Positions 18,961-60,515 of a stretch of 64,000 nucleotides of DNA are shown here, one piece after another. Origin of the DNA: an uncultured Phycisphaerales bacterium (GTDB lineage Bacteria; Planctomycetota; Phycisphaerae; Sedimentisphaerales; Anaerobacaceae); the NCBI GenBank assembly GCA_903857265.1, contig CAIODZ010000011.1, forward strand, positions 60,697 through 124,696, in the 5' to 3' direction. Both the position numbers and the translations under genes were made by a program. Every line of letters starts with the position of its first letter. Position 1 is the stretch's first letter. The notes beneath the pieces were generated by a model, which was not told the DNA's origin, did not search any database, and saw only the letters and a list, made by a program, of their open reading frames with translations.

Positions 18961-19676
18961 TTAAGAAGACCCAAGACATAAGACGCAAGACCCAAGACGC
19001 GAAAGGTTTTTCGCTTACCGAAGTCCTTATTGCTGTCGGCTTGCTGGCTATGGGGATGCTGTTTATCGCGGGGGCGTTTCCCGTGAGTATTCATTTCACG
19101 ACGGTTGCCACCGAGCGCACCATTGCCCCGATAGTCGCCGACGAGGCCTTTGTTAAAATAAAACTTTACGGCATCATAAATGCAAATGTGGTTTATGCTT
19201 CACAAATTTCTTACGAGGTTGATGCGCCATCGTTGTTTCCTTATACCGAGTTTGCGTATCCTTCAACGCCGTCAGCGGCTAAGCAATATTGGTGGTCGGC
19301 TATATTTCGAAGGGTTGACATTAACGACGTTCAGGTTACCGTTTTTGTCAGCCGAAAGGTCGGCGCAACAACGACTTATCCCAATCCTATTGATTCCTCA
19401 AGGCCTGTTGCAGTGAACGTTGGTGTTTCAGGCACAGCCGGCAATTACGATATTTCTATAACAGGCGACAAGACATGGATTAACGACGGCTGCACAATTG
19501 TTGATAATGTTACAGGCCAGATATATCGCGTCCTCGAACGCTATCCAAACAATGATACTTTCATAAAACTCGACAAACCTTGGCAGGGCGGGACAACGGG
19601 CGTCTGGGTCGTTCCGCCGCCCAAGACCGGCCGATACCCCTGTATTGGTGTCTATCAGAAAGTAATGAATTTCTAA
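18957..19676 (+). CDS. minor pseudopilin (GspI/PilV-like) with heptad-repeat leader
   Basis: A 239-residue prepilin-like protein with G-FSLTEVLIAVGLLAMGMLF, typical of the GspI/PilV group. Before the cleavage site, the basic leader IKKTQDIRRKTQDA is encoded almost entirely by five perfect 7-bp tandem units (18966-19000). The same family occurs as non-coding repeats at 56402. The start overlaps the upstream stop. Confidence 0.82.
   Translation: MIKKTQDIRRKTQDAKGFSLTEVLIAVGLLAMGMLFIAGAFPVSIHFTTVATERTIAPIVADEAFVKIKLYGIINANVVYASQISYEVDAPSLFPYTEFAYPSTPSAAKQYWWSAIFRRVDINDVQVTVFVSRKVGATTTYPNPIDSSRPVAVNVGVSGTAGNYDISITGDKTWINDGCTIVDNVTGQIYRVLERYPNNDTFIKLDKPWQGGTTGVWVVPPPKTGRYPCIGVYQKVMNF
18966..19000 (+). 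repeat. heptanucleotide array, five units, inside a coding region
   Basis: Five consecutive 7-bp units: AAGACCC, AAGACAT, AAGACGC, AAGACCC, AAGACGC. The array encodes the leader of the GspI-like pseudopilin. The non-coding array at 56402 starts with the same units. Confidence 0.9.
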
Positions 19677-19684
19677 TTTTGCTT

Positions 19685-20656
19685 ATGAACGAAATACGAA
19701 ATACTAAATACGAGCGACGAGGATTCACCCTTATAGAACTCGTCGTCGCCATAGGCGTAATGGCGATGGTGATTGCCTTTGCCGGGGTGGTTTTCAAAGC
19801 CAGTATCGCCTCATACCGCATCGCCACTGCCCAGGCCGAGATTATGCAAAAATTCCGCGCCATCACCGACCAGTTGAGCAGTGACTTCAGAGGGCTTCAC
19901 GTCGGTATGCCTGTATTTCTATGGTTTGAGGTCGATGACTCCAACGATAGGTTTGACCAGATTATGCTTTTCGCCGATGGCGATTTCCAGTCTGTTCGGC
20001 CCTATGACACCGACATGAATCCTCCCCATTATCAAATACCACGGACCACTGGTTCTCCTGTCGTAGGCAATGTTGCGCGAATCCAATATGGCCAGGCCAA
20101 GGTATATTCTCCGGTCGCGAACAAATATTGGGACCCCAATGAGCAGGTTGGCGAAAATAGCCCTGACCGCTTCTTTAATAAAAAATACAGGACATTATCC
20201 AGGCGCCAGCACATTTTAACCGCTGACCCTAACATTATTCCTTGGCCGGACCCCGGTAATTTTATCAACTCCTTCGAGCCAAATCGTAATGATGATTATG
20301 AGCACGATACAAATTCGTTGTCTCAATGGCAGGCATTGCTCAATGTACAGGCAAATCAAGACCATGTGATGGATATTTGTTTTCATTACAGACCGCGGAT
20401 TGATTATCAAAACAGCACAGGTTTGCATATGCTGATGGCTGAGGGTGTTCCTAACTTTATGATTCAATTGACTGTTGATGATCCTATTAATGGGACTTTC
20501 AGTTGGCAGCCGGAAAACGATGCGATAAAAAATAACACCCTGCCTCCTGTTTTTTTCTGGCCCCGCGCAGTCAAATTTACCTTCACGCTTTACGATTCAC
20601 AAGGCGTGTTCAAGAATGGCCAAACTTTTACCCATATCGTTTATATCGGTGACTGA
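19685..20656 (+). CDS. minor pseudopilin (GspJ-like) with heptad-repeat leader
   Basis: A 323-residue prepilin-like protein with leader MNEIRNTKYERRG and FTLIELVVAIGVMAMVIAF. The TAQAEIMQKFRAITDQLSSD segment is typical of GspJ. The frame opens earlier at 19580 inside the preceding gene, but the ATG at 19685 gives a proper short leader eight bases after the upstream stop. The leader is encoded by 7-bp units of the GAAATAC/TAAATAC family, which also occurs in inverse orientation in the array at 56934. Confidence 0.82.
   Translation: MNEIRNTKYERRGFTLIELVVAIGVMAMVIAFAGVVFKASIASYRIATAQAEIMQKFRAITDQLSSDFRGLHVGMPVFLWFEVDDSNDRFDQIMLFADGDFQSVRPYDTDMNPPHYQIPRTTGSPVVGNVARIQYGQAKVYSPVANKYWDPNEQVGENSPDRFFNKKYRTLSRRQHILTADPNIIPWPDPGNFINSFEPNRNDDYEHDTNSLSQWQALLNVQANQDHVMDICFHYRPRIDYQNSTGLHMLMAEGVPNFMIQLTVDDPINGTFSWQPENDAIKNNTLPPVFFWPRAVKFTFTLYDSQGVFKNGQTFTHIVYIGD
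19691..19718 (+). repeat. heptanucleotide array, four units, inside a coding region
   Basis: GAAATAC, GAAATAC, TAAATAC, GAGCGAC in 7-bp register. The reverse complement of the intergenic array at 56934-56982 shares the core actaaatacgarcgac. Confidence 0.8.
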
Positions 20657-20657
20657 T

Positions 20658-23156
20658 ATGACAAGGAAGATGATTCCAAATTCGAAATCTGCAATCTGCA
20701 ATCTGCAATCCGCAATCCGGAGCGGCTCCGCTATCATTCTTGCTGTTGTTCTTACAACCCTTCTTGCAATCTTAGGCGTTCTATTTTTGTTTTCCTCCCG
20801 CGTTGATTCAGCCGCCACCTCAGCAGTGGGGGCTAACCATGACCTCAAATTGGCCGTCGATACTGTTGTCGCACAAATTTCCCAGAAACTTGTTCTTGAT
20901 ACGCCGGGCATTAACCCAAACGGCACATACTACAATTACCCCGATGGCAACAATCCCTGGCTTGCCTGCCTTGAGCCGTATCAGTATGCTCTTAACACTT
21001 ACCACTGGCGGCATATAACAGATATTAATAACACATTTCGGGCCAACCAGGCCTTGTGTGACATTCCGGCTAACATTGTCCTCGAATATCAGGACAGCGT
21101 TGATGTTGGCGACAGCACTCCGGTAAAACAATTCTATGCCGACGCCGACGGTGATGGCGTCAGCGATTCGATTTGGGTGCAGGTTTCGGATATAAATTCG
21201 AGCAAGGGCAAGCCCGTTTACGCTGCGATTCGCATAATCGATAACGGCGGTATGCTCAATATCAACACCGGCCTCAAATTCGACCCAACTCGCTCCGTTG
21301 GCTCAACTCAGCTTGATATCAACGTTGCTGAATTGTCGCAAAGAGGCATTAGTAACGGAACGCCTGATGTAGCTGCATTGAAACTTGACAATTGGCGATG
21401 CGGCACAGAACCAAGTTATCTTTACGAGCCAAGCGTCATTTGGCAATATTATCTGCCTGATGGAAACTACACTCCCTTTGATATTTCCGATGAGCTTGTT
21501 CTTCGTTATCGTTATATCTTGAACAATGACCAGATGACAACAAGAATCGAAAACCTCTGGACAAACGCCTTCAAAGGCGGCCTTGTAGTTCCATTAACCT
21601 CACCGAGCCAAATCAATACCCTTCCCACATTCTGGGGGCATAGGGTGGGCTACGACTTTTCTGACGCCAGCATCTACGACTACCAGCATCTCGCCACGAC
21701 TTATAATATGGACAGGATTATCGCTCCCGATGGCAGCAAAATGTTCAATATCAACCAGGCCTCTTCGTCTAATTTCTCTAACATAATCAAACTTCGCGAC
21801 CGAATCAAAAAAGCCCTCGAACCGAATGAAAATTATGACGCAAACCAGATTGCCGTAAATCTAATCGATTACATAGACACGGATTCAAGTGTTACCTACT
21901 TTGTTGCTCCCGGCACATTAACACCTTATTTTGGCTTCGAAAGACCCTGCGTTTACATATCAGAAATCGCCCAGAATTTTTATAAGCCAGACCCAAGGGA
22001 TCCCACTACATACTATTCTTATGCCATAGAGCTATACAAGCCATACCCGGAGGATGACGCCCCAAACGGATGGAAACTTGGCATTGATGGGCAGCCTCCT
22101 ACTATTACTATAAACAGTTGGACCGCTTCACAACGGTTTCATGTGCTGGCAAATATTGATCTCAGAGCAGATATACCAATCGATGATTCCAATTCAAATA
22201 CACAGAAGCCTGTTTCCGACATAAAATTCTACCCGGGAAGTAGTATAAAGCTTTATCGGCCCGTAAATGGTTATGGGCTTACGCCGGTTGATTCGGTAAG
22301 CGTCCGACCTATGAATGTAAACGGCAGCAACTGGATGGCTCCGACGAGCAGTTCCGAACCGCACAGTTTTGAAAGGGATGTAACTATTAACAGGTGTATC
22401 AGGAGGGTTTGGGACCCGAATGGGCCAAATTCGCCGACACTTGGCAAGATGAATAACTTTGTCGATACCGGAACACTTATGATTCAGGCGCACCCGGACA
22501 ACAACTCGCTTACGAACATCGGCGAAATCGGCCAGCTCTTATCCCGTGACCAAATTTCGATCGATAAAAATAGTACTGAAGCAGATGTTCGCCTTAATCT
22601 CGCCGACCCGTGTGTCCAGAACCTTTTCAAATACCTGACCGTGATGGATCCGAACGCATACACAGGCGACCCAAATGAAACCCGAATCAAAGGCAGAATC
22701 AATACCAATACCGCACCGTGGTTTGTTCTCGCCCAACTGCCCTGGGTGTCTTATAACACCACGAATTATGACCTCGCCCGCTCAATCGTAAATTACCGCG
22801 ATACTATTCGCGGCCCCTTCAAAAATATCGGCGAACTTATGAATGTCGGCATCATTAACAATGACTCGAACAGTTTGAACAGGATGGATTATTACAAGGG
22901 CAAAGCTATTCCCACTCCTTTAGCGACGCCCACGGACTGCAATGGCGACGCATTTGAGGAGCGGGACGTTATTTTTGACCGTATCAGCAATCTCGTAACT
23001 GTTCGCAGCGACGTCTTTACGGCCTATATCCTCGTCCGCATCGGCCCCTCCGGCCCGCAAAAAAGAGTCATCGCTATTTTAGACAGAAGCGGCGTTACGC
23101 CCACAGGCGGCAAAGTAAAAATTGTCGCGATACAACAAGTGCCAGACCCACGTTAA
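20658..23156 (+). CDS. GspK-like large minor pseudopilin with heptad-repeat leader
   Basis: An 832-residue protein whose N-terminus has SGSAIILAVVLTTLLAILGVLFLFS, a membrane helix of the GspK type, where the pseudopilin motif is degenerate. The IDNGGMLNINT segment and later repeated helix-hairpin-helix-like NINTAPWFVLAQLPW motifs (as NTNTAPW) are typical of GspK. It is far longer than usual GspK (about 330 aa). The ATG at 20658 starts one base after the upstream stop. Residues 8-21 (NSKSAICNLQSAIR) are encoded by six 7-bp repeat units. Confidence 0.78.
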   Translation: MTRKMIPNSKSAICNLQSAIRSGSAIILAVVLTTLLAILGVLFLFSSRVDSAATSAVGANHDLKLAVDTVVAQISQKLVLDTPGINPNGTYYNYPDGNNPWLACLEPYQYALNTYHWRHITDINNTFRANQALCDIPANIVLEYQDSVDVGDSTPVKQFYADADGDGVSDSIWVQVSDINSSKGKPVYAAIRIIDNGGMLNINTGLKFDPTRSVGSTQLDINVAELSQRGISNGTPDVAALKLDNWRCGTEPSYLYEPSVIWQYYLPDGNYTPFDISDELVLRYRYILNNDQMTTRIENLWTNAFKGGLVVPLTSPSQINTLPTFWGHRVGYDFSDASIYDYQHLATTYNMDRIIAPDGSKMFNINQASSSNFSNIIKLRDRIKKALEPNENYDANQIAVNLIDYIDTDSSVTYFVAPGTLTPYFGFERPCVYISEIAQNFYKPDPRDPTTYYSYAIELYKPYPEDDAPNGWKLGIDGQPPTITINSWTASQRFHVLANIDLRADIPIDDSNSNTQKPVSDIKFYPGSSIKLYRPVNGYGLTPVDSVSVRPMNVNGSNWMAPTSSSEPHSFERDVTINRCIRRVWDPNGPNSPTLGKMNNFVDTGTLMIQAHPDNNSLTNIGEIGQLLSRDQISIDKNSTEADVRLNLADPCVQNLFKYLTVMDPNAYTGDPNETRIKGRINTNTAPWFVLAQLPWVSYNTTNYDLARSIVNYRDTIRGPFKNIGELMNVGIINNDSNSLNRMDYYKGKAIPTPLATPTDCNGDAFEERDVIFDRISNLVTVRSDVFTAYILVRIGPSGPQKRVIAILDRSGVTPTGGKVKIVAIQQVPDPR
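20678..20719 (+). repeat. heptanucleotide array, six units, inside a coding region
   Basis: AAATTCG, AAATCTG, CAATCTG, CAATCTG, CAATCCG, CAATCCG in exact 7-bp register within the leader of the GspK-like gene. The same family is intergenic at 37066-37100. Confidence 0.9.
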
Positions 23157-23236
23157 TTTTTTACCACTAAGACACCAAGACACAAAGTTTTCTTCTTAGT
23201 GCCTTAGTGACTTTGTGGCAGAATAAATCGGAAATT

Positions 23237-35011: not shown

Positions 35012-35154
35012 TGAAACATTAGAAAACACAAAAAAACTATCCTAGGAAAAATCAGTAGCCATCAAATAACGGCAAAGAGATAAGAGCGTTTTGTCAAAAC
35101 GGTCTGTCGAGGCACGTCAAACCGGCAATAAAAGCAAGCATTTCTCCGCATCCC

Positions 35155-35189
35155 TCAATCGTCAATCGGCAATCGAAAATTGGCAATCT
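35155..35189 (+). repeat. heptanucleotide array, five units
   Basis: TCAATCG, TCAATCG, GCAATCG, AAAATTG, GCAATCT in 7-bp register in the 267-base gap between the HEPN-like gene and lacI. Confidence 0.8.
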
Positions 35190-35278: not shown

Positions 35279-36310
35279 ATGGCCGTAATTCAGTCAAATG
35301 GTGCGCCGACAATAAAAGAGATAGCCGCTCATTGCGGTGTAAGCCAGGCCACCGTCAGCCGGGTATTAAACAGTAATTACAAACACGGTTTTACCGTCAG
35401 GCCGGAGGTTTATCAGCGTATTATCGATACGGCCAACTCCCTCGGATATCGGCCAAACCTGGCAGCAAAAAATCTTGCTCGGCAAAAAACGAGCATAATC
35501 GCCATTCTCGGTTGCGACGTCGCACTGGGCTGGCCGGGAAACATTTATCAAACCGTAGTCGAGTCCTGCGTTCGTGAGCTGCACTCGGACTCGGGCGAAT
35601 ATGATGTTTGTATGTCCATTCCTAATCTGGCCAAAGACCGCTGCGAACTGCCCCCCTGGAAGGTCGATGGGGCGATTGTCCTTCAGCAATGTTCCCCCGA
35701 AACTATCGAAGTGCTGGAAAGGAACCATATTCCGTATGTGGTTATCAACGGCGTCGGGGGGCCGACGTGCTCATCGGTTATTCCTGATGATATTGAGGGG
35801 GCACGGCTGGCTATGCGTCACCTGGCCGAGCTTGGGCATACCCGGATAGCTTACGCGGGCCCCACCAGTGAGCACTATACTCATAGAAGTATCAGCGATA
35901 GGCATAACACATATCTTTCTGAATTGAAAATACGGGGGCTTGAGCCGGTGAAAGATCACGACAAGGCGTTTAGTTCCGCGACCGCCTTTCTGGCTTCTTC
36001 GATAATGAAACATCACGCGACGGCCATTCTGGCTTACGACCATATCGAGGCGATGAGAATCCTTCAGGGGGCTAATACGCTTGAAATTCCGATTCCGGAG
36101 CAGGTCAGCATGGTTTGCTTTAATGACGAGTACCTGTGCAGCATTGTTACTCCGCCCTTGACAACCGTGGCTGTTCCTTCGGAACAAATGGGGCAAGTCG
36201 CGGCCAATATGCTCCTTAAGCGGCTGAAATCGCCCGCCGATTTCCATCCTGAATGCGTTAAACTCCAGCAGAGTTTGATTGTTAGAGCTTCCACCGCGCC
36301 GGCAAAGTAA
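35279..36310 (+). CDS. LacI family transcriptional regulator
   Basis: A 343-residue regulator. The N-terminal helix-turn-helix is TIKEIAAHCGVSQATVSRVLN, followed by the hinge region (YRPNLAAKNLARQKT). A periplasmic-binding-protein-like effector domain runs to the end with PPLTTVAVPSEQMGQ. The effector is probably a sugar or nucleoside but cannot be read. The neighbouring genes (satP and acs, convergent) do not obviously fit a sugar regulon. ATG at 35279 after AGAGGAA. Confidence 0.92.
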   Translation: MAVIQSNGAPTIKEIAAHCGVSQATVSRVLNSNYKHGFTVRPEVYQRIIDTANSLGYRPNLAAKNLARQKTSIIAILGCDVALGWPGNIYQTVVESCVRELHSDSGEYDVCMSIPNLAKDRCELPPWKVDGAIVLQQCSPETIEVLERNHIPYVVINGVGGPTCSSVIPDDIEGARLAMRHLAELGHTRIAYAGPTSEHYTHRSISDRHNTYLSELKIRGLEPVKDHDKAFSSATAFLASSIMKHHATAILAYDHIEAMRILQGANTLEIPIPEQVSMVCFNDEYLCSIVTPPLTTVAVPSEQMGQVAANMLLKRLKSPADFHPECVKLQQSLIVRASTAPAK

Positions 36311-36995: not shown

Positions 36996-37065
36996 ATTCT
37001 CTTCCTTTCCCTAATTCGTAAAATCCGCATCTTGCCCGCCTTTGGCGTGGCAGATTCGCATCCTT

Positions 37066-37100
37066 AAATCCGCAATCTACAATCTGCAATCCGCAATTTA
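37066..37100 (+). repeat. heptanucleotide array, five units
   Basis: AAATCCG, CAATCTA, CAATCTG, CAATCCG, CAATTTA between acs and satP. It is the same family as the coding array at 20678. Confidence 0.88.
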
Positions 37101-41258: not shown

Positions 41259-41359
41259 GAAATCCCAAGTTTCGCGCCTTGTGCGCAAGATAAATCAAAA
41301 CAATTTTCGTTTGTGTTTTGTTGTTTGTCTGAAATTTTGAATTTGAAATTTGGGATTTC
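41259..41359 (+). repeat. 15-bp inverted repeat in the HNH-AP2 leader
   Basis: The 15-base arms at 41259-41273 and 41345-41359 are complementary except for one G-T position, which would pair as G-U in RNA. The arms are 71 bases apart, and the right arm ends 7 bases before the GGAGGA ribosome-binding site. Confidence 0.65.
41330..41357 (+). repeat. heptanucleotide array, four units
   Basis: TGAAATT, TTGAATT, TGAAATT, TGGGATT in 7-bp register. It overlaps the right arm of the inverted repeat, so the hairpin may have arisen from repeat spread. Confidence 0.7.
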
Positions 41360-41378: not shown

Positions 41379-41954
41379 ATGTCTGCTCAACTGACAATAA
41401 CGATACCTGTCTGGCTCGACTTCATTTTCACCTGTCCACTGCTCACCTATCGCCTGTTCCGTTTCGGCTACACCTTCCGCAAAATCGATTTAGGTCTGGG
41501 CTGTTTCACTATCGTCGAGCCGCTTGATTACTATCGAATCAGGCATTTCAAATGGTTCGTCCACGGCAATGGCTCGAACCTTTACGCCGCCCGCAGCGAA
41601 TTAACCAATGACCTGCGCTCGAAAATAATTTTCCTACACCGTCAGCTTATGTCCCCGCCCGCAGGCCTCGTCGTTGACCATTGGAATTGCGATTCACTCG
41701 ACAACCGCCGCGCCAATCTCCGCATCGTCACTCAGGCCGTCAATATGCGTAACAGGCGAAAACGCAAAAACACCTCTTCGCGTTACATCGGCGTCCATTT
41801 CGACAAGCAGCGCAATAAATGGTCTGTCCACATCAGATATAACGGCAAAAAACTCTGGCTCGGCCGTTTCGACAATGAAATTGATGCCGCTCGTACTTAT
41901 GATGAGGCAGCGAAGAAATACTATGGCGACTTCGCGCGTCTCAATTTTTGTTAA
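41379..41954 (+). CDS. HNH endonuclease-like protein with AP2 DNA-binding domain
   Basis: A 191-residue protein. The HNH_3-type core is seen in VVDHWNCDSLDNRRANLRIV with the following NMRNR. The C-terminal AP2 domain has SSRYIGVHFDK, NKWSVHIRYNGKKLWLG and the final YYGDFARLNF. Proteins of this build occur as free-standing homing-type or phage-related nucleases. The ATG at 41379 follows GGAGGA by six bases, so the longer open frame from 41205 is not used. No intron or intein host gene is seen around it. Confidence 0.88.
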   Translation: MSAQLTITIPVWLDFIFTCPLLTYRLFRFGYTFRKIDLGLGCFTIVEPLDYYRIRHFKWFVHGNGSNLYAARSELTNDLRSKIIFLHRQLMSPPAGLVVDHWNCDSLDNRRANLRIVTQAVNMRNRRKRKNTSSRYIGVHFDKQRNKWSVHIRYNGKKLWLGRFDNEIDAARTYDEAAKKYYGDFARLNFC

Positions 41955-46037: not shown

Positions 46038-46065
46038 GATTTCTAACTTCTCATTTCTCACTTCT
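46038..46065 (+). repeat. heptanucleotide array, four units
   Basis: GATTTCT, AACTTCT, CATTTCT, CACTTCT in exact 7-bp register. Confidence 0.8.
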
Positions 46066-46173
46066 CCCGAACAGGGATGGCCGAGCCATAAATTTTTGCC
46101 ATTTACTTTCCTGTCCTCGACTCAAGCTTCAAAGGTTTCACAGTCGGGGATTGCTTTTTGATTTGAGGTTGAA

Positions 46174-46201
46174 CTGTACGCTGCACGCTATACGCTGTCC
46201 G
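46174..46201 (+). repeat. heptanucleotide array, four units
   Basis: CTGTACG, CTGCACG, CTATACG, CTGTCCG in exact register. The same four units, in a different order, occur at 53069-53096. Confidence 0.88.
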
Positions 46202-46274
46202 CTGATTCTTAAATCCGCAATTTCTTCCTGATTTCCTGATAACCTGACTATCCCCAAAAAATACCCGAATTTAC

Positions 46275-46302: not shown

Positions 46303-46484
46303 AATAAAAGCAACATGAGTCCACACCTGCCTGCCCTCGAATGTTGTAGTCGGGGGTGGAGGATGGCGTTTTTAACACATTTCTATTCGCCTTAGGCGAA
46401 TTGGAGAAGGGGAAAAATATGCTCACAAGCAGAAGAGCCATATCGGGAGACATTCGATTTCTATCTTTTAGGAGGTCTGGAGAA

Positions 46485-49400
46485 ATGTTTAAGAATAAAA
46501 TTCATGCGCCCATTTTCAAACATCAAATAAAATTATCAATCTTTGTGGCTTTGTTTGTTTGTGGTTTCTCGTTAGCTGAGGTATTTGCAGAACAGATAAA
46601 TATTTCAGATAGCAATTGGCAGTCAATACGTGGAATACGGCCAGTTGTGGTTGCTAAATCAAACAATGTGAATAATGACTCAAATCGGATGGTTGCTAAA
46701 AGCGTCATTATGTCAAGCTCTGCTCCAACGCCACAGCCAACACAATGCATTGTCACCAAGTCCTCTCCTACATCACTGACATATAGTCAAACTGATTCCA
46801 CGCATGGAGGAATGCAGGCAAGTCTGTCAGTTCAAGCATTTCAAGCCGACCCTTACCTTGAAACGGCTGATAATTATGATTACTACCTCGTCTATATGGG
46901 TGTGCATATCCATCCTGGTAGTGGGTGGCCCACCTACACAATGGCCCTTGGTCAAGATGCAAAAACAGGGTCTGCACTTGAGGTTTGGGCTGGTATATCC
47001 GGGGAGATACAACAAATTTCGACCTGGTTCGATCCAAAATCGGGAACATGGGGCGATGAAGGCGATCACAGTTTCCAAATATCAGCGCAGGTTGCGGGAA
47101 ACGGTTTTGGTCTGGGTGCTTCGGGGCCTGTCTACGCTGGAAGCGTGATAACGGAACCCAGCACTAATCAAATGCAGTGGTACCTTGGAATGAATAGACC
47201 CTGGCCGATTGATCTTAATCCCCGAGACAGAAAAGACTATGATTTAGTTTTCCTTTTTGTTGCGAGAGTTCCTGAAGGAACTTCTCTTAATATTTCTGCA
47301 AATGCACTCTATTGGTGTTGGGGCGGCGTTCTGAATCCACAATCGGCGTATGTGTGGCCATCGGTTTCCGGCCAAATATTTGGGAGACATTTACTGCAAA
47401 CATCGGCGACTCCGTCTGATGGTGGCTATATAACACCCTCTTCTGGCCTTCAATGGATTGATACTAAAATTCCAGTTACGCCTCATTCTAATTCAGGATA
47501 TCTTTTCGGTAGTTGGTTGGGGGATGTCCCTTCAGGACACGGAACAGATAATCCACTTCAAATTTATACACTCAAAAACATGAGTTTGACCGGACAATTC
47601 CTAAAGTTAACAACTATAGAAGTTCAGTCAGATCCGGTTGGAGTACTTATAAGTGACCCAGATGGGGGATCAAATACTTCTTATTTGCGAAATAAGGCTG
47701 CAAGTTCTTCGTATTGGCTGCAAGCTCCTTCGACTGCCAGCAGCCGTCCTTTCACTGGTTGGCAAAAAAATGGTTCTTCGTATTCGACTAATCGGAGAAT
47801 TGACTTTTCCTTCCCATTATCAGGAACGGATGTCTATAAAGCCACCTATGCTCAAATATACACATTAAGCCTATCTAAAAGCGGTAATGGGAGCGTAAGA
47901 GTGAACGGGACACAGTATTCTCTGCCGTGGTCCGGGAGCTTTACGGCGGGGACAAACGTAACGCTTGAAGCTGTTCCGGACAGTGGATGGCAATTCTCTA
48001 ATTGGGGGATAGACCTTTCCGGAAACGCAAACCCGACAGCGATTCAAATGAATGGCGAAAGAAATGTAACAGTTAATTTTGCCCAGCCGAACATGTCCGT
48101 ATCTTCGTCTGATGGCCTGAGTTCATCCGGACAGCAGGGAGGACCGTTCAGTCCATCCAGCAAGGATTATACCGTGCAAAATACAGGTTCCGGGACACTT
48201 TCGTGGTCTGTTTCCAAGGTACAGAATTGGGTTTCTCTGTCGCAAAGTAGTGGAACGCTGGGGGCGGGACAGTCCACAACCGTAACGGTCTCTGTCAACA
48301 GTAATGCCAACAGCTTGTCAGCAGGGTCTTACTCGGACACGGTGTCCTTTACCAATAATACAAATGGTTTAGGAAACACCAGCCGGGGCGTTTCGTTATC
48401 GGTAACTACGCAGCCGAACATGTCGGTATCTCCATCTGATTGGCTCAGTTCATCAGGACAACAGGGAGGACCGTTTAGTCCGTCAAGTAAAACATATACT
48501 GTAACAAACACTGGCGGCGGGACGCTTTCGTGGTCTGCTTCCAAGGCACAAAGCTGGGTTACCGTTTCGCCAAGCAGTGGAACGCTGGGGGCGGGTCTGT
48601 CCACAACCGTAACGGTCTCTATCAATAATAATGCCAACAGCTTGTCTGCGGGGTCTTACTCGGACACGGTGTCCTTTACCAATAATACAAATAGTTTAGG
48701 AAACACCAGCCGTAGTGTTTCGTTATCGGTAACTACGCAGCCGAACATGTCGGTATCTCCATCGGATGGGCTTAGTTCATCCGGACAACAGGGAGGACCG
48801 TTCAGTCCATCCAGCAAAGATTATACCGTGCAAAACACAGGCATCGGGACACTTTCGTGGTCTGCTTCCAAAACACAAAGTTGGGTTACTGTCACGCCAA
48901 GCAGCGGGTCTCTGACTGCCGGGCAGTCGGCTAGTGTAACCGTGTCTACCAACAGTAATGCTAATGGCCTGTCGCCGAACACTTATTCAGACACGGTGTC
49001 TTTCGTCAATAATACGAATAGCTCGGGCAATACCAGCCGCAGTGTCTCTTTGACGGTTTCGACCAATCCGACTATATCAGGTTATGTGCGTGATTGCAGT
49101 AGTAACGGTGTTGGCGGTGTTACTGTAACGTTCAGCAACAGTGCTGGTTCAACAACGACCCTCAACGATGGTTCGTACAGCAAACAGATTACCTCTGGCT
49201 GGAGCGGGACCGCAACACCGAGTTATTTGACATGGAGTTTCACTCCATTGAATCGTTCTTACAGCAATGTTACCTCAAATCAGACGAATCAGAACTTCCA
49301 GCGAAGTGATTGCTTATGTGGGCCTTACACAGTTGGTGGGGCCATTTTCACCAATATAGGCAGTCCGATGACGAGTGGCCTTGCAGATGTTAATATTACA

Positions 49401-52400
49401 CTTACAGGAACAGGCGGGACGTTTACTGGAAAGACATCCGGCGCACAAGGAATATGGTCAATACCAAACGTTCCTTGCGGGACATACACTGTTACACCAA
49501 GTCGTTTGTGTTATAGATTCGAGCATGTGGCAGGTGGCATATCCGATGGTAATTCCTCTATTACTATTACTGTTGACGCTGATCACCAGGCGGCAAACCA
49601 GAGCATTCAGTTCTTGGCTATTCCTGTAACTTGCTACGTTAAATCCGATATGAACTGGGATGGTTTTGTTAGCATCGTTGGCGATGTCGAACCATTTGTT
49701 AAAGTTGTCTATAATAATGACTTGGCCTGGTATCAAAATCATTTCCCAGGCAAAGACCAGGTGCTTCCCGGTGATTGCAGTGGTGACGGTTTCCTGAGCA
49801 TTATCGGCGATGTCCCCTGCTTTGTGAACTGCGTATACTTTGGCAATTGTGCGACAACAGTCACCGGCGTTCAATCCGGCATTCTGATGGCAGCGGTTGC
49901 AGGTGAAAGCTCTGAAAGTAAGGCCGTTGATAAGTTATTGTTGCCGTTAGGTCTTGCCTCTGCGGTCTCGATGGATACAGAGCCATCTGCGCCAAAGCCG
50001 GGAGACGTGATTTCACTGGCTCTGTGGGGCGAATGGTCAGATAGCTGTATTCCGACCGAAGCAAGGACTCGGGTGAATGGCACAAATATTTATGTCAATT
50101 TGTTGCACGGATATACGGCAGATACGTCGTGTGCTCAAGCCCTCACAGAGTGGTCTGCTGTTAAAGATATAGGACCGCTGGATGCAGGCACTTACGAGGT
50201 ATATGTGAGTGTTTACGAAGAAAGCTGGGACAAATTGAATGCAACGCCGCCCTCGCTCGTTGGGAAGATAACTGTAGGCGAGGTCCGTGCTCGGTCCGTT
50301 TTGTCCAGTCTGGCTACTTCATATACCATTGGCGGTGCGATTTATACTGATATCAGTAATCCGTTGACAAGTGGCCTTGCAGACGTCAATGTGACGCTTA
50401 CAGGCACAGGCGGCACATTCAATGCCAAGACATCCGGAGCGCAAGGTATATGGTCCGTTGCCAATGTTCCGGAAGGAACATACACGGTCACACCGGCCCG
50501 CACAGGTTACTGCTTCGAACACGTAGCCGGCGGCGTCTCCGATGGTCAATTGTCAATAACGATAACAGTCAATTCCGCAAACCAGGCAGCCAACCAGAGC
50601 ATACAGTTCCTTGCTACAGCCGGTTGTAACCACGCGACATATACTGTTGGGGGTGCGATTTACACTGACCTCGATAATCCATTGGTTAGCGGACTGGCAG
50701 GAGTGAAAGTCAGCGTTGATGGCAACAACGGAATATTTGACACAAATACCGCTGGTAGTCAGGGACTCTGGCAGATCGATGTTCCCGAAGGCAGCTATGA
50801 AGTCACGCCCAGTATGACTGGCAAGATATTTGAACATGTGTTCAGTGGTAATCCGGATAGTCAGTCCTCTGTTTTGATTGACGTAAATGCAGCTAATCAG
50901 GCAATCAACCAAAGCATTCAGTTCCTGGCAAGCGAACCAAACATACTTCCAGCGACCAATCCGACCCCGGCCAATGGTGCGACAGGTGTCAGCGTAACAA
51001 CCGACCTTAGCTGGACAGCCGGCTCAGGCGCTACATCACACGATGTCTATTTCGGCACCGTCAGTCCCGGTACATTCCGGGGCAACCAGACAGCAACGAC
51101 CTACGATACCAACACTATGGCTAACAATACGACTTATTATTGGCGTATCAATGAGAAGAACACTGGCGGTACAACCACTGGCGATGTCTGGAGCTTTAAG
51201 ACTGTTGCTGTTGTTGCTGCGCCCGGTAAAGCTACAAGTCCGACCCCGGCTAACGCAGCAACAGGCGTGGGTGTAACCACCGACCTTAGCTGGACAGCCG
51301 GCTCAGGCGCAACATCACACGATGTCTATTTCGGCACCGTAAGCCCCGGCACATTCCGGGGCAATCAGACAGGAACAACCTACGATACCGGAACTATGGC
51401 CAACAACACGACTTACTATTGGCGCATCGATGAGAAAAATGCCGGCGGCACTACCACTGGCGATGTCTGGAGCTTCACAACAGTGCCGCAAGTAACCATT
51501 TCACCTAACGGTGGCACATTTACCGGTTCGATATCAGTGACGCTATCCTGCTCGACGTCAGGTATGACAATCCGCTATACGACCAACGGCAGTGATCCGA
51601 TATCCAGTTCGACACAATATACATCGCCGTTTACAGTGAGCAGCTCATGTACGGTCAAGGCGAGAGCATTTAAGGGCGGTCGCAATGGTACTGGTGGCGA
51701 TGTTGCATCGGCAATTTTCACAAAAGTTGCTACTCCTGGCAAGGCGACAAGTCCGACACCGGCAAGCGGAGCGACAGGTGTCAGCGTAACCACCGATCTT
51801 AGCTGGACAGCCGGCTCAGGTGCTACCTCACACGATGTCTATTTCGGCACCGTGAGTCCGGGCACGTCCCGAGGCAACCAGACAGCAACGACCTACGATA
51901 CCGGAACTATGGCTAACAACACTACTTATTACTGGCGTATCGATGAAAAGAACGCAGGCGGCACTACCACTGGCGATGTCTGGAGCTTTAAGACTGTTGC
52001 TGTTGTTGCTGCGCCAGGTAAAGCTACAAGTCCGACACCGGCAAGCGGAGCAACAGGTGTCAGTGTAACCACCGATCTTAGCTGGACAGCCGGCTCAGGC
52101 GCAACCTCACACGATGTCTATTTCGGCACCGTCAGTCCCGGTACATTCCGAGGTAATCAGACAGCAACGACCTACGATACCGGAACTATGGCCAATAATA
52201 CGACTTACTATTGGCGCATCGATGAGAAGAATGCTGGCGGCACTACCACTGGCGATATCTGGAGCTTCACGACCACGGCCAGCGTCACGAAGCCGACAGC
52301 CACCACCGTGGCCGCCAGTGCTATCACCGCCAACGGAGCGACCTTGAACAGCACGGTCAACCCGAACGGGTCGAGTACGACGATCTATTTCCAATACGGG

Positions 52401-52574
52401 ACCACGAAGAGCTACGGCAGCACTACGACTTCAAACAGTATCGGCACCAGTTCCGGCAGCCGCAGCCAGACCATCTCCGGTCTGACGCGGAGAACGACCT
52501 ACCATTTCCGGATTGTGGCGACCAATAGCGGCGGCACCAGCTACGGCAGCGATTTGACCTTCACGACCCGCTAA
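46485..52574 (+). CDS. giant modular secreted protein (BACON, SdrD-like, Fn3-like and chitobiase-like modules)
   Basis: A 2029-residue exported protein. AGGAGG at 46470-46475 and a signal peptide ending in LAEVFA set the start at 46485. Order of modules: a unique N-terminal domain; InlB-like/PKD-type repeats (about 47400-48080); three BACON-type modules (48083-49060); a carboxypeptidase-regulatory-like domain; a dockerin-like pair (DMNWDGFVSIVGDV, DCSGDGFLSIIGDV); three YTVGGAI-type SdrD-like modules (49321-49620, 50323-50620, 50640-50930); four near-identical Fn3-like modules; a chitobiase C-terminal-like module (51490-51735); and a GC-richer final Fn3. It is probably a surface adhesin or scaffold. 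No sortase or anchor motif is visible. Confidence 0.85.
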   Translation: MFKNKIHAPIFKHQIKLSIFVALFVCGFSLAEVFAEQINISDSNWQSIRGIRPVVVAKSNNVNNDSNRMVAKSVIMSSSAPTPQPTQCIVTKSSPTSLTYSQTDSTHGGMQASLSVQAFQADPYLETADNYDYYLVYMGVHIHPGSGWPTYTMALGQDAKTGSALEVWAGISGEIQQISTWFDPKSGTWGDEGDHSFQISAQVAGNGFGLGASGPVYAGSVITEPSTNQMQWYLGMNRPWPIDLNPRDRKDYDLVFLFVARVPEGTSLNISANALYWCWGGVLNPQSAYVWPSVSGQIFGRHLLQTSATPSDGGYITPSSGLQWIDTKIPVTPHSNSGYLFGSWLGDVPSGHGTDNPLQIYTLKNMSLTGQFLKLTTIEVQSDPVGVLISDPDGGSNTSYLRNKAASSSYWLQAPSTASSRPFTGWQKNGSSYSTNRRIDFSFPLSGTDVYKATYAQIYTLSLSKSGNGSVRVNGTQYSLPWSGSFTAGTNVTLEAVPDSGWQFSNWGIDLSGNANPTAIQMNGERNVTVNFAQPNMSVSSSDGLSSSGQQGGPFSPSSKDYTVQNTGSGTLSWSVSKVQNWVSLSQSSGTLGAGQSTTVTVSVNSNANSLSAGSYSDTVSFTNNTNGLGNTSRGVSLSVTTQPNMSVSPSDWLSSSGQQGGPFSPSSKTYTVTNTGGGTLSWSASKAQSWVTVSPSSGTLGAGLSTTVTVSINNNANSLSAGSYSDTVSFTNNTNSLGNTSRSVSLSVTTQPNMSVSPSDGLSSSGQQGGPFSPSSKDYTVQNTGIGTLSWSASKTQSWVTVTPSSGSLTAGQSASVTVSTNSNANGLSPNTYSDTVSFVNNTNSSGNTSRSVSLTVSTNPTISGYVRDCSSNGVGGVTVTFSNSAGSTTTLNDGSYSKQITSGWSGTATPSYLTWSFTPLNRSYSNVTSNQTNQNFQRSDCLCGPYTVGGAIFTNIGSPMTSGLADVNITLTGTGGTFTGKTSGAQGIWSIPNVPCGTYTVTPSRLCYRFEHVAGGISDGNSSITITVDADHQAANQSIQFLAIPVTCYVKSDMNWDGFVSIVGDVEPFVKVVYNNDLAWYQNHFPGKDQVLPGDCSGDGFLSIIGDVPCFVNCVYFGNCATTVTGVQSGILMAAVAGESSESKAVDKLLLPLGLASAVSMDTEPSAPKPGDVISLALWGEWSDSCIPTEARTRVNGTNIYVNLLHGYTADTSCAQALTEWSAVKDIGPLDAGTYEVYVSVYEESWDKLNATPPSLVGKITVGEVRARSVLSSLATSYTIGGAIYTDISNPLTSGLADVNVTLTGTGGTFNAKTSGAQGIWSVANVPEGTYTVTPARTGYCFEHVAGGVSDGQLSITITVNSANQAANQSIQFLATAGCNHATYTVGGAIYTDLDNPLVSGLAGVKVSVDGNNGIFDTNTAGSQGLWQIDVPEGSYEVTPSMTGKIFEHVFSGNPDSQSSVLIDVNAANQAINQSIQFLASEPNILPATNPTPANGATGVSVTTDLSWTAGSGATSHDVYFGTVSPGTFRGNQTATTYDTNTMANNTTYYWRINEKNTGGTTTGDVWSFKTVAVVAAPGKATSPTPANAATGVGVTTDLSWTAGSGATSHDVYFGTVSPGTFRGNQTGTTYDTGTMANNTTYYWRIDEKNAGGTTTGDVWSFTTVPQVTISPNGGTFTGSISVTLSCSTSGMTIRYTTNGSDPISSSTQYTSPFTVSSSCTVKARAFKGGRNGTGGDVASAIFTKVATPGKATSPTPASGATGVSVTTDLSWTAGSGATSHDVYFGTVSPGTSRGNQTATTYDTGTMANNTTYYWRIDEKNAGGTTTGDVWSFKTVAVVAAPGKATSPTPASGATGVSVTTDLSWTAGSGATSHDVYFGTVSPGTFRGNQTATTYDTGTMANNTTYYWRIDEKNAGGTTTGDIWSFTTTASVTKPTATTVAASAITANGATLNSTVNPNGSSTTIYFQYGTTKSYGSTTTSNSIGTSSGSRSQTISGLTRRTTYHFRIVATNSGGTSYGSDLTFTTR
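48083..49060 (+). repeat. three tandem BACON-module DNA repeats of about 325 bp
   Basis: Units begin near 48085, 48412 and 48737 with AACATG-TCCGTATCT or AACATG-TCGGTATCT and share long identical stretches, for example around CAGGGAGGACCGTT. The high identity indicates recent duplication. Confidence 0.8.
50944..52275 (+). repeat. four near-identical Fn3-like DNA repeats of about 260 bp
   Basis: Units at about 50950, 51236, 51748 and 52030 share almost unbroken identity around CACGATGTCTATTTCGGC and CCTACGATACC. The second and third are separated by the chitobiase-like module. Such repeats favour recombination and copy-number change. Confidence 0.85.
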
Positions 52575-53047: not shown

Positions 53048-53103
53048 GTCTTAGGTCTTTTGTCTGAACTGTACGCTGTCCGCTGCACGCTATACGCTGT
53101 CTT
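53048..53103 (+). repeat. heptanucleotide array, eight units from two families
   Basis: GTCTTAG, GTCTTTT, GTCTGAA, CTGTACG, CTGTCCG, CTGCACG, CTATACG, CTGTCTT. Two unrelated families are joined without loss of the 7-bp register. Confidence 0.88.
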
Positions 53104-56376: not shown

Positions 56377-56401
56377 GCGTCGCGGCCAGGGGCCGCAACG
56401 C

Positions 56402-56471
56402 AAGACGCAAGACGTAAGACGCTAGACCTAAGACATAAGTCATTTATGATTTCCGATTTCCAATTGCCGAT
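56402..56471 (+). repeat. heptanucleotide array, ten units
   Basis: AAGACGC, AAGACGT, AAGACGC, TAGACCT, AAGACAT, AAGTCAT, TTATGAT, TTCCGAT, TTCCAAT, TGCCGAT. The family drifts from AAGACNN to TNCCGAT while the register holds for 70 bases. Confidence 0.9.
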
Positions 56472-56524
56472 TGGCGCCCGCCTTCGTTAGCACTTCGGCG
56501 GGTAAAATTTTGGGATGCGGACAG

Positions 56525-56643
56525 TTCAATTTCCGATTGCCGAATGTCGATTGGCGATTTGAAGACAGAAGACAGAAGACAGTTCGTGGTTCGTTGTTCA
56601 TAGCAGTTTGTATGTCGTCGTTCGTATATAGTATATCGTAATT
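56525..56643 (+). repeat. heptanucleotide array, seventeen units of mixed families
   Basis: Units include TCCGATT, GGCGATT, AGAAGAC (twice), AGTTCGT, GGTTCGT, CGTATAT, AGTATAT and CGTAATT. All 17 consecutive units fit a strict 7-bp register, although several families follow each other. Confidence 0.85.
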
Positions 56644-56746
56644 CGGATGCCGCCTCCCGTGAGGGACGCCAAACGGCGGAAGGCGGGGAGTTAGTCACCC
56701 GTGCCACGTGGCTCGTGACTCGAAAATAAAATGGGAGAGTATCTTT

Positions 56747-56917
56747 ATGCAAATAGAGATTTTAAACAATTTAATAGTTTCTTTAAAAGCCCCGTTAAAT
56801 GCCATAAAGCGGAATCCTATACGTTTTCTTATATGGGTATTAGTAGCTATCATCATAGGATTAGCAGCCATTTGGTTGCCAATATTGCTTATTAAAGCGG
56901 CTCGTTTTGTAAGTTGA
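56747..56917 (+). CDS. small single-pass membrane protein (56 aa)
   Basis: A 56-residue protein with a polar N-terminus (MQIEILNNLIVSLKAPLNAIK) and one or two hydrophobic helices (FLIWVLVAIIIGLAAIWLPILL). The ATG at 56747 follows GGGAG by about eight bases. It lies in a repeat-rich stretch but is itself not made of repeats. Function unknown. Confidence 0.5.
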   Translation: MQIEILNNLIVSLKAPLNAIKRNPIRFLIWVLVAIIIGLAAIWLPILLIKAARFVS

Positions 56918-56933
56918 TACAGGCAAGAGCTAA

Positions 56934-56982
56934 TTAGTCGATAGTATTTAGTCGATAGTCGTTCGTATTTAGTATTTAGTGA
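56934..56982 (+). repeat. heptanucleotide array, seven units
   Basis: TTAGTCG, ATAGTAT, TTAGTCG, ATAGTCG, TTCGTAT, TTAGTAT, TTAGTGA. Its reverse complement resembles the coding array at 19691. A GAAGCCGGG-family copy follows at 56990-57038. Confidence 0.88.
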
Positions 56983-57051
56983 AAAACATGCCTGGCTTCG
57001 CCAAGAAACTACGCCGAGGTAAACGCCGTGGCAGGCGGAGGGCACAGAGAG

Positions 57052-57107
57052 TTTTTAGTTTTAAGTTTTGAGTGTTTAGTGTTGAGTTTTAAAATTGCCG
57101 ATTGGCG
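57052..57107 (+). repeat. heptanucleotide array, eight units
   Basis: TTTTTAG, TTTTAAG, TTTTGAG, TGTTTAG, TGTTGAG, TTTTAAA, ATTGCCG, ATTGGCG, changing family in register. Confidence 0.85.
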
Positions 57108-57206
57108 ATTTGTTTTACCGCGGAGGTCGCGGAGAACGCAGAGAGTTTTTAACCACAGATTGCACAGTTTTTTTAGCCACCGAGGACACAGAGAGCACAG
57201 AGAATT

Positions 57207-57929: not shown

Positions 57930-57957
57930 TCGCATTACTCCTAAAATACTTATGACT

Positions 57958-59472: not shown

Positions 59473-59620
59473 AGATAATTAGTTTAAGCAATGTGGAGAT
59501 ATTTGCAAGATAGAATTGGGGGGAAACCTTAGAAGAAAGAAGGGCGGACACATAGGTCTGCCCCTACGAAACAACTATGGAAATCCGCGTAATCAGCGGT
59601 TAAAATAATTGTGTTTTATG

Positions 59621-59667
59621 ACCCGGCTTCGCTACGCTTCGCCGTGGCAAGCGGAGAAATAGAATTT
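59621..59667 (-). repeat. right copy of 47-bp inverted repeat
   Basis: Inverse copy of 52815-52861 with one mismatch in 47. It lies in the gap between the methyltransferase gene and the glycosyltransferase gene. Confidence 0.92.
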
Positions 59668-59692
59668 AAGATTTAAGATTTGAAATTTGAGA
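59665..59692 (+). repeat. heptanucleotide array, four units
   Basis: TTTAAGA, TTTAAGA, TTTGAAA, TTTGAGA directly abutting the 47-bp repeat. Confidence 0.85.
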
Positions 59693-59717
59693 ACAAAAAA
59701 CCTGGACCAAGGAAGTT

Positions 59718-60422: not shown

Positions 60423-60424
60423 GG

Positions 60425-60459
60425 ATTGTAGATTGCAGATTTCGGATTGCGGATTTGTT
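60425..60459 (+). repeat. heptanucleotide array, five units
   Basis: GATTGTA, GATTGCA, GATTTCG, GATTGCG, GATTTGT starting three bases after the glycosyltransferase stop. Confidence 0.88.
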
Positions 60460-60487
60460 TTATCACAGAAGACGTAGAGAAATATAA

Positions 60488-60515
60488 TTTGAAATTTAAA
60501 ATTTAAGATTTGAGA
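60488..60515 (+). repeat. heptanucleotide array, four units
   Basis: TTTGAAA, TTTAAAA, TTTAAGA, TTTGAGA. Two hairpins follow (CCCCCAGG/CCTGGGGG at 60522-60541 and TCCGCC/GGCGGA at 60562-60576). Confidence 0.85.

What the first reader, a model, noticed from the sequence alone, without database searches (positions are those of the whole stretch)
18966..60515. Sixteen degenerate heptanucleotide arrays of several families across 42 kb
Arrays at 18966, 19691, 20678, 35155, 37066, 41330, 46038, 46174, 53048, 56402, 56525, 56934, 57052, 59665, 60425 and 60488 all keep a strict 7-bp period, although their sequences belong to unrelated families (AAGACNN, NAATCNG, CTGTACG, TTTAAGA, TTAGTCG and others). 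In several, one family passes into another without breaking register (53048-53103, 56402-56471, 56525-56643). This implies a generating process that counts seven bases and not one particular mobile sequence. Heptanucleotide STRR sequences are known from heterocystous cyanobacteria. A comparable system in a probable planctomycete would be notable.
Basis: partly seen in the sequence, partly recalled or inferred. Interest (0 to 1): 0.85.

Follow-up and report, generated by a model that had tools for sequence, protein, structure and literature searches.

The report
Seven-letter DNA repeats that rewrite themselves
The genome of this uncultured planctomycete relative carries about 140 short arrays per million bases of imperfect seven-letter DNA repeats, built from about a dozen recurring word families that replace one another at the same sites in related species, likely because new arrays are copied from old ones, which would give the long-unexplained seven-base repeats of bacteria a testable origin.

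Summary
In detail: all 16 sites beat the 99.9th percentile of random window stretches on a 4-unit score; 41330 only ties it on the 5-unit score. In 1.13 Mb of the genome, period 7 gives 161 arrays against 1 in Markov sequence and at most 9 at periods 8-15. The arrays are not unrelated: 155 of 161 fall into 13 recurring families. In the six largest, neighbouring units are no more alike than distant units of the same array, which plain slippage does not predict. In a congener, 23 arrays with orthologous flanks split into 14 same family (often other words or unit numbers), 5 another heptad family at the same place, 4 none. GATTNNN arrays occur in 79 of 294 phylum genomes. Xanthomonas, Nostoc, Geobacter and Beggiatoaceae have published counterparts. 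I favour seeded copying of words from a genome-wide pool (0.45); the copying itself is inferred. New here: many families in one genome, replacement in place, and arrays seeded in coding linkers (AddA, pseudopilin leaders).

The parts
18966..18998 (+). AAGACNN array inside the leader peptide of a prepilin-like protein (gene 18957-19676)
   Evidence: motif GFSLTEVL follows; NCBIfam prepilin domain
19689..19713 (+). GAAATAC units passing in register into GAGNNAC, directly after the ATG of a second prepilin-like gene (19685-20656)
   Evidence: orthologues with other unit numbers in G001, G002, G003
20683..20719 (+). AATCNGC array in the N-terminus of a third gene (20658-23156; no match in NCBIfam at E 0.01)
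35153..35188 (.). AATCGNN array upstream of a LacI-type regulator gene (35279-36310)
37063..37097 (-). GATTGCN array (read in the sense of the acs gene) starting about 4 nt after the stop codon of acetyl-CoA synthetase (37102-39084, minus)
   Evidence: G001 and G002 carry a CAGCGTN array at the same place
41330..41358 (.). weak TGAAATT array just upstream of an HNH-AP2 endonuclease-like gene
   Evidence: 26/35, the weakest site
46039..46066 (.). [AC]TTCTNN array
46174..46204 (-). CTGTACG array (minus strand reads CAGCGTN, one of the two commonest families)
53048..53103 (.). three GTCTNNN units passing in register into a CTGTACG array
56398..56473 (+). AAGACNN array passing in register into GATTNCC units
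56477..56502 (.). palindrome CCCGCC-N14-GGCGGG lying between two heptad arrays
56525..56649 (+). GATTNNC, then AAGACAG, then TTCGTNN-like units in one register
56934..56980 (+). TTAGTNN array
57049..57092 (+). TTTAGTT-family array (GAGTTTT units)
59664..59692 (+). ATTTAAG/ATTTGAA array
60423..60455 (+). GATTNNN array; the same core with other words at the orthologous site of G001 and G002
60483..60515 (+). AATTTRA array; absent at the orthologous site of G002

Best explanation
The arrays form a genome-wide library of degenerate seven-base words that likely spreads and renews itself by seeded copying: a short chance match to a family core would be extended by units copied from arrays elsewhere in the genome. 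Shown: strict period 7, few families with fixed cores and variable positions, no neighbour-to-neighbour similarity beyond the array average in the six largest families, change of words, unit number or whole family at orthologous sites, and arrays in a coding linker whose codons in an array-free relative already equal one and a half units. Inferred: that the copying is template switching during replication or gap filling, that core matches serve as annealing sites (which would keep the register and explain in-register family changes), and that the arrays are mostly tolerated rather than useful, surviving after stop codons, in spacers, in pseudopilin leaders and in protein linkers. Untested: the polymerase, and why the step is seven.
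For: Period and control: 161 vs 1. Few families: 13 with two or more members, 6 singletons among 161; 1,394 similar array pairs vs 367-406 after column permutation. No stepwise slippage signature: in the six largest families adjacent units are about as alike at variable positions as any two units of the array (0.53/0.51, 0.50/0.49, 0.51/0.51, 0.68/0.67, 0.39/0.45, 0.53/0.56), and in CAGCGTN and CTCGATA no more alike than units of different arrays (0.51, 0.46); 7 of 161 arrays hold three perfect consecutive units. Turnover: 23 of 161 own arrays passed the flank filter in 0.56 Mb of G002; my reading of the printed alignments: 14 same family, 5 other family (each also detected as an array in G002), 4 none. 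G001 and G002 are 93 and 89% identical in their two longest syntenic stretches; their acs arrays are identical while the first pseudopilin leader holds AAATCCG in one and ACGAGNN in the other. Words change while the core stays: window 60425 vs G001 vs G002. Seeding: in AddA the codons ACGAGCGACGA of G000 face four full ACGAGNN units in G002 (21 bp longer, in frame); ACGAGNN arrays also sit there in G003 and G023, antisense in G027, inverted in G007, and ACGCTTC units in G021; G029, G032, G016 and G017 have none. In the four arrays that I chose and unitised by eye (G002, G003, G023, G027), 81 of 85 core letters are intact with 7 different two-letter words in 17 units.
Against: Arrays do not share blocks as copying of whole arrays would predict: CAGCGTN pairs sharing two or more consecutive units 86 vs 89.3 in within-array shuffles, three or more 7 vs 7.3; of six families only GATTNNN shows a mild excess (27 vs 17.2, 13 of 300 shuffles reach it), CTCGATA less (14 vs 9.3, 32 of 300). 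In four of six families units are more alike within an array than between arrays (0.51/0.33, 0.51/0.40, 0.67/0.51, 0.56/0.40), and in GATTNNN, GAATTTA and TTTAGTT identical neighbours exceed a shuffle across arrays (9 vs 4.3, 12 vs 7.1, 5 vs 2.2), though not a shuffle within arrays; so the pool is not fully mixed. AGAC units show order dependence (2 of 500 shuffles). The four-unit peak of CAGCGTN and the same core across a phylum are not explained by neutral copying. In a conserved array (L057) substitutions also hit the core, so cores are not kept everywhere. Direction of change at the AddA site is inferred from relatives, not observed.
Confidence: 0.45

Rival explanations
1. The arrays are binding sites of conserved regulators or nucleoid proteins that contact a fixed core every seven bases over about four to five units, as proposed for Geobacter and Beggiatoaceae repeats.
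For: Fixed cores with free positions; four-unit peak of CAGCGTN runs; 28 of 31 close inverted pairs have the G-rich arm first; same core family across the phylum; published proposals of the same kind.
Against: Family replaced or lost at 9 of 23 orthologous sites; several families serve the same site in different species; arrays inside coding leaders and linkers; substitutions in the core of a conserved array.
Confidence: 0.2
2. Plain replication slippage with a preferred step of seven bases (the polymerase-contact idea of Mrazek et al. 2007, seen only as cited), followed by point mutation.
For: Unit-number changes in whole units at orthologous sites (L006 9900: about 15 vs 6 units; AddA +21 bp); local homogeneity in four families; period 7 also leads in genus, family and order samples and in 5 of 12 phylum samples.
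Against: No excess similarity of neighbours over distant units in the six largest families; few perfect runs (7 of 161); families recur far above column-permuted expectation; variation sits in the same columns across the arrays of a family.
Confidence: 0.2
3. A dedicated templated enzyme, telomerase-like or reverse-transcriptase-based, writes the units from RNA templates.
For: Strict length with position-specific variation and no neighbour similarity resembles what I recall of variable telomere repeats.
Against: No RVT_1 (PF00078) match in any of the 4 genus genomes (91-96% complete drafts; 26 of 61 genomes searched have one); many families would need many templates.
Confidence: 0.05
4. The arrays are debris or arms of a mobile element, for example of the dispersed HNH-AP2 endonuclease genes.
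For: HNH-AP2 genes are multicopy in the genus (22, 26, 17, 19 AP2 matches) and 9 of 161 arrays lie within 400 bp upstream of one (7 within 400 bp downstream).
Against: G023 and G027 have no AP2 match but 20 and 24 CAGCGTN hits (controls 2 and 3); 152 of 161 arrays are not in that upstream window.
Confidence: 0.04
5. G-quadruplex-forming repeats kept for their structure, as argued for Xanthomonas and Nostoc.
For: Shared architecture: heptads, variable positions, convergent pairs, closeness to stop codons, and a four-unit peak in CAGCGTN.
Against: None of the 13 family consensuses has three fixed G or C in a row.
Confidence: 0.03
6. Assembly artefact.
For: The source is a 70-contig draft genome.
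Against: Arrays conserved at orthologous sites of other genomes, and present in 20-kb samples of two of three single-contig assemblies (5 in G004, 2 in G019; 0 in G013).
Confidence: 0.01

Closest known systems
GGGAATC / (GGGANTN)n heptamer arrays of Xanthomonas and GGGGA(C/T)T arrays of Nostoc (PMC4692102; abstract and passages seen)
   Same: Strict heptads with about five fixed and two variable positions (Xanthomonas), intergenic, close to stop codons on the sense strand, 70 and 75 close convergent pairs, a preference for four units (here a peak in CAGCGTN only), length and sequence variation between close species.
   Different: A G-rich family explained by G-quadruplexes; here 13 families without G-tracts, in-register joins, and family replacement at orthologous sites.
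Geobacter metallireducens heptanucleotide elements (PMC2700814; passages seen): four GGACCGG units (49 copies) and five MTYCTGA units in opposite-strand pairs (15 of 16 sites)
   Same: Four to five degenerate heptads, the first kind within and between genes, the second paired on opposite strands; MTYCTGA resembles the [AC]TTCTNN family found here.
   Different: Described as predicted regulatory RNA elements and regulator-binding sites; no turnover at orthologous sites or shared word pool in the passages I saw.
TAACTGA direct repeats of Beggiatoaceae, some cyanobacteria and Bacteroidetes (PMC4679880; abstract, introduction and passages seen)
   Same: Intergenic heptad arrays, two to six copies in the BOGUAY genome, patchy across phyla.
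   Different: A single exact heptamer, mostly just upstream of start codons; here degenerate and commoner after stop codons.
STRR heptanucleotides of heterocystous cyanobacteria (recalled; only mentions seen in PMC4692102)
   Same: Several heptad families in one genome; small hairpin elements embedded in heptad arrays are recalled from Nostoc and seen here in the window and at two orthologous sites of G002.
   Different: Membership could not be tested by sequence here.
Heptanucleotide long simple sequence repeats of Mrazek et al. 2007 (not held; read only as cited in PMC4679880 and PMC4692102)
   Same: Excess of period 7 among longer simple repeats in many bacteria.
   Different: Slippage was proposed there; the degenerate arrays here lack its signature.
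Satellite families from heptamers, e.g. (GATAGRA)n of Chloroflexus aurantiacus (PMC6749651; passages seen)
   Same: Dispersed heptad satellites in a bacterium (22 satellites).
   Different: A single heptamer family.

Membership tests
Heterogeneous heptamer arrays (Xanthomonas/Nostoc type) | Period exactly 7 in excess over other periods | tested here: met
   161 vs 1 Markov; at most 9 at periods 8-15
Heterogeneous heptamer arrays (Xanthomonas/Nostoc type) | Some positions fixed, two or so variable | tested here: met
   six largest families: core columns 0.89-0.96 conserved, 2-4 variable columns
Heterogeneous heptamer arrays (Xanthomonas/Nostoc type) | Preference for four units | tested here: inconclusive
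   [CT]AGCG[TG][ATG] runs of 2-6 units: 15, 10, 18, 4, 0 (one of 9); GATT[GT]NN: 70 (34 in Markov), 11, 15, 4, 0, so only a secondary hump; the other six patterns show no peak at four
Heterogeneous heptamer arrays (Xanthomonas/Nostoc type) | Intergenic, close to stop codons | tested here: met
   130 of 161 intergenic, 26 coding, 5 at stretch edges (own gene calls); arrays cover 4.9-7.9% of positions 0-90 nt after stops vs 1.6-4.1% of positions 0-90 nt before starts
Heterogeneous heptamer arrays (Xanthomonas/Nostoc type) | Close convergent (inverted) pairs | tested here: met
   31 close inverted pairs (6 in G000), 28 with the G-rich arm first; G000 also has 16 direct and 29 unrelated close pairs
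Heterogeneous heptamer arrays (Xanthomonas/Nostoc type) | G-tracts able to form G-quadruplexes | tested here: not met
   no family consensus has GGG or CCC; so not filed as a member of the G4 class
Geobacter MTYCTGA elements | Five degenerate [AC]T[CT]CTGA units, paired on opposite strands | tested here: inconclusive
   family [AC]TTCTNN/GAATTTA with three inverted pairs exists, but no Geobacter sequence was compared
Slippage microsatellite | Neighbouring units more alike than distant ones; perfect runs common | tested here: not met
   in six families adjacent identity exceeds any-pair identity by at most 0.02; 7 of 161 arrays with three perfect units
Telomerase-like / reverse-transcribed repeats | A reverse transcriptase in the genome | tested here: not met
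   0 of 4 genus genomes have a PF00078 match (drafts)
STRR of heterocystous cyanobacteria | Homologous sequence or mechanism | not tested
   no cyanobacterial genome was searched; mechanism unknown there too, as far as I recall
Regulator-binding site arrays | A protein that binds the cores | not testable with these tools
   needs biochemistry

The most novel reading that the evidence does not exclude
Heptad-step template switching: some bacterial polymerase or gap-filling process adds DNA one seven-base word at a time, each time re-annealing through the four to five core bases to a different array anywhere in the genome and reading two to three fresh bases from it. The core is then the annealing site and the variable positions are what is copied, which would explain in one stroke the fixed period, the fixed cores, the mixed words without shared blocks, the in-register family changes, the seeded arrays in coding linkers and the inverted pairs.
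Probability: 0.2. Interest if true: 0.88.

Novelty: new variant of a known kind. Interest (0 to 1): 0.63.

Why it matters
Heptad repeats have been noticed separately in cyanobacteria, xanthomonads, Geobacter and Beggiatoaceae and given separate explanations (slippage, G-quadruplexes, regulator sites). Here one genus shows many families side by side, so explanations tied to one sequence fail, and orthologous sites caught in different states make the origin testable. The arrays also write new peptide into proteins (AddA linker, pseudopilin leaders).

Tried and rejected
Reverse-transcriptase origin: searched PF00078 in 61 genomes; no match in the 4 genus genomes. HNH-AP2 endonucleases as cause: multicopy in the genus but no match in G023 and G027, which have CAGCGTN arrays. 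A palindromic CCCGCC..GGCGGG element as carrier: only 4 copies in 1.13 Mb, 1 of 4 within 30 bp of a detected array. Other dispersed repeats: no 20-mer met the multicopy cut-off; 12-mers show further repeat classes, not pursued as cause. Whole-array copying: no block sharing beyond shuffles except a mild GATTNNN excess. Neutral decay of perfect repeats: in 17 AddA units 81 of 85 core letters are intact although the words differ. Alignments of four gain or loss cases gave no target-site duplication that I could read; one of the four (L016) did not align usefully. Shared vocabulary, tested with own-genome family profiles: 25 of 29 arrays in the genus (control 34%), 18 of 37 in the family (control 32%), 20 of 35 in order and others (control 31%) (a few loci overlap, so some arrays are counted twice), and 22 of 48 in phylum genomes that were chosen by GATT hits (control 8.9). 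In that last set period 7 leads the periods 5-11 in only 5 of 12 genomes; period 6 is higher in several GC-rich ones.
Full report
What was checked. The 16 sites were rescored one by one against random stretches of the same window, with Tandem Repeats Finder and with a column-consensus detector. Every site scores 24-27 of 28 over four units, where the 99.9th percentile of 3,799 array-free stretches is 22; over five units 41330 only ties the 99.9th percentile. The same detector on 1.13 Mb (59 fetched stretches plus the window, 40% of the 2.81-Mb genome) gives 161 arrays at period 7, 1 in order-3 Markov sequence, and at most 9 at any period from 8 to 15; periods 4, 5 and 6 give 91, 17 and 21 against 86, 9 and 4 in the control. 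The window holds 16 of the 161, about 1.8 times the average density.

Who it is. The closest named records by an acetyl-CoA synthetase search are Phycisphaerales MAGs from a fen (96 and 95% identity) and Sedimentisphaerales MAGs. G001 and G002, two of the three congeners searched, have contigs of the same length (32,571 and 26,438) as the records behind L100 and L099, so I take them to be those two MAGs.

Families. Clustering the 161 arrays by five-unit profiles gives 13 families with two or more members and 6 singletons: GATTNNN 33, CAGCGTN 32, GAATTTA 20, TTTAGTT 18, CTCGATA 15, AAGACNN 13, then smaller ones. Similar pairs number 1,394 against 367-406 in three column permutations. In the six largest families the core columns are 0.89-0.96 conserved and two to four columns vary. 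A pattern search for CTGTACGCTGTACG with up to two mismatches finds 115 places in the whole genome against 7 for the reversed pattern.

How units are arranged. If arrays grew by slippage, neighbours should be the most alike. They are not: in the six largest families, identity at variable positions between neighbours exceeds that of any two units of the same array by at most 0.02. In CAGCGTN and CTCGATA it also equals or falls below that between different arrays; in the other four it is higher within arrays (for GATTNNN 0.51 vs 0.33), so the pool is only partly mixed, and AGAC units show order dependence (2 of 500 shuffles). Of 161 arrays, 7 contain three perfect consecutive units. CAGCGTN runs peak at four units (15, 10, 18, 4, 0 for two to six); GATT[GT]NN runs have only a secondary hump there (70 with 34 expected, 11, 15, 4, 0); six other patterns have no peak at four. 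Whole-array copying is not supported: shared runs of units do not exceed within-array shuffles except mildly in GATTNNN.

Where they lie. By my own gene of 161 arrays are intergenic, 26 coding and 5 at stretch edges, in a sample that is 82% coding. Arrays cover 4.9-7.9% of positions 0-90 nt after stop codons against 1.6-4.1% of positions 0-90 nt before starts, and some start inside the last codons. Near stops one orientation is commoner in several families (CAGCGTN 11 to 2, GAATTTA 5 to 1, GATTNNN 6 to 3, TTTAGTT 7 to 4; AGAC 3 to 3; AGATTT 0 to 2), by my reading the one that offers stop codons such as TAG or TGA. Three consecutive genes of the window's secretion-type operon carry an array in the N-terminus; two have a prepilin domain match. 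Close inverted pairs have the G-rich arm first in 28 of 31 cases. Nine of the 28 come from loci fetched with the GATT pattern; without them it is 19 to 3, and two rows (L111) share an arm. A stricter family scan found only 3 same-family inverted pairs in G000.

Turnover. Of the 161 arrays, 23 passed a flank filter (at least 220 aligned bases, 60 on each side, mean identity 79%) in 0.56 Mb of G002; the other 138 did not and were left out. My reading of the 23 alignments: 14 keep the family, often with other words or unit numbers (L006 9900 about 15 vs 6 units; L007 3086; window 60416); 5 show another heptad family at the same place (window 37054, L014 5755, L014 6521, L020 7995, L023 2167); 4 show none (L005 12203, L007 11801 and 11849, window 60483). 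In the other direction 20 of 70 G002 arrays passed; an inverted pair of G002 (L263) has 11 bp in its place in G000. At the acs stop codon G001 and G002 (93 and 89% DNA identity in their two longest syntenic stretches) carry an identical CAGCGTN array, G000 a GATTGCN array, and two further relatives yet other heptads. The first pseudopilin leader holds AAGACNN in G000, AAATCCG in G001, ACGAGNN in G002 and AGACNN plus AATCNNN in G003, and no array in G007, G019 and G032.

The AddA case. A conserved helicase-nuclease (AddA, 883 bits against a cut-off of 708) has a variable linker before the motif VQGIIDLL. G000 reads ACGAGCGACGA there, coding T-S-D-D, which already equals one and a half units of the ACGAGNN family. 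G002 is 21 bp longer, in frame, with units ACGAGTC ACGGGTC ACGAGGC ACGAGCG. Of the other 14 orthologues fetched (56 of 61 genomes have a match), G003 and G023 have ACGAGNN arrays, G027 the antisense form, G007 an inverted form, G021 ACGCTTC units, G001 a longer insert ending in ACGAAAT-like units; G029, G032, G016 and G017 have none; I leave G004, G006, G019 and G025 unclassified. The added units keep the core and carry other words than the seed, which slippage from the seed alone does not predict. A second linker of the same protein holds a GATTTAT-type array in G000 and a TTTTGAG-type array in G002, in replaced segments of equal length (88 bp).

How far it reaches. Four GATT cores at spacing 7 occur in 79 of 294 phylum genomes, at spacing 8 in 15 of 294, many of the listed period-8 hits being perfect repeats. 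Some genomes have hundreds (383 hits in G331). The reversed control, TTAGNNN, is itself frequent in a few genomes. Through named loci 14 more genomes were searched: the four planctomycetes all have hits (174, 136, 53, 28), and of ten with other labels four do: Fibrobacterota (45), Lentisphaerae (17), Cloacimonadota (7) and Chloroflexota (2, with 9 in the control). These MAGs were found through a planctomycete-like gene and may be misbinned. In 12 phylum genomes 22 of 48 arrays fit families of this genome against 8.9 expected (genomes chosen by GATT counts, and 6 of the 22 are GATTNNN); there period 7 leads in 5 of 12 samples.

What is known. Heptad arrays with variable positions, a four-unit preference, convergent pairs and closeness to stop codons are described for Xanthomonas and Nostoc and linked to G-quadruplexes (PMC4692102, abstract and passages). 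Geobacter metallireducens has four-unit GGACCGG and five-unit MTYCTGA elements, the latter in opposite-strand pairs (PMC2700814, passages). TAACTGA repeats are described in PMC4679880 (abstract, introduction, passages), heptamer satellites in PMC6749651 (passages). Mrazek et al. 2007 was not held and is cited second hand. Searches for heptad repeats in planctomycetes or MAGs show no paper on such arrays there among the rows listed; one search listed 15 of 268, and only the open-licence library is covered.

Judgement. Sequence-bound explanations (G-quadruplex, one mobile element) fail on the number of families; reverse transcription lacks its enzyme in the genus drafts; slippage alone lacks its signature but can account for some unit-number changes. 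Seeded copying from a shared pool explains most, with two open points: why seven, and why the same cores persist across a phylum.

Noticed in passing
window 41379-41954 and 13 further loci in 1.13 Mb: A dispersed family of HNH-AP2 endonuclease-like genes with a conserved N-terminus; 22, 26, 17 and 19 AP2 matches in the four genus genomes, several with a heptad array just upstream.
   Followed up: partly
L014 7703, L001 13931, L025 10989 and others: A second kind of degenerate repeat with a step of about nine bases (CACAGANNN, as in ACAGAGGACACAGAGAA) in intergenic DNA.
   Followed up: no
L016 10278-10336, L015 19578, L001 4237 and others: A composite dispersed repeat (..CGTAGCGCAGCGAAGATCCCCGCATG..GGCGGGGAGCCA..GCAACAGGGGACCCA); four of the six printed copies of its end lead straight into a heptad array.
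   Followed up: no
L007 1612, L011 11544, L018 9634, L025 3546, L030 4823: A near-identical palindrome TATAAGTATATACGCATATACTTATATA in several intergenic regions.
   Followed up: no
window 46356-52574: A 2,072-aa open reading frame with 327-bp and 279-bp internal repeats.
   Followed up: no
L182 7019-7193: An unusually long heptad array (about 25 units, AGAACAN and related words) in G003.
   Followed up: no
G308, G136, G250: Period-8 GATTNNNN arrays (up to 216 hits in G308) in a few phylum genomes, so a step of eight also occurs.
   Followed up: no
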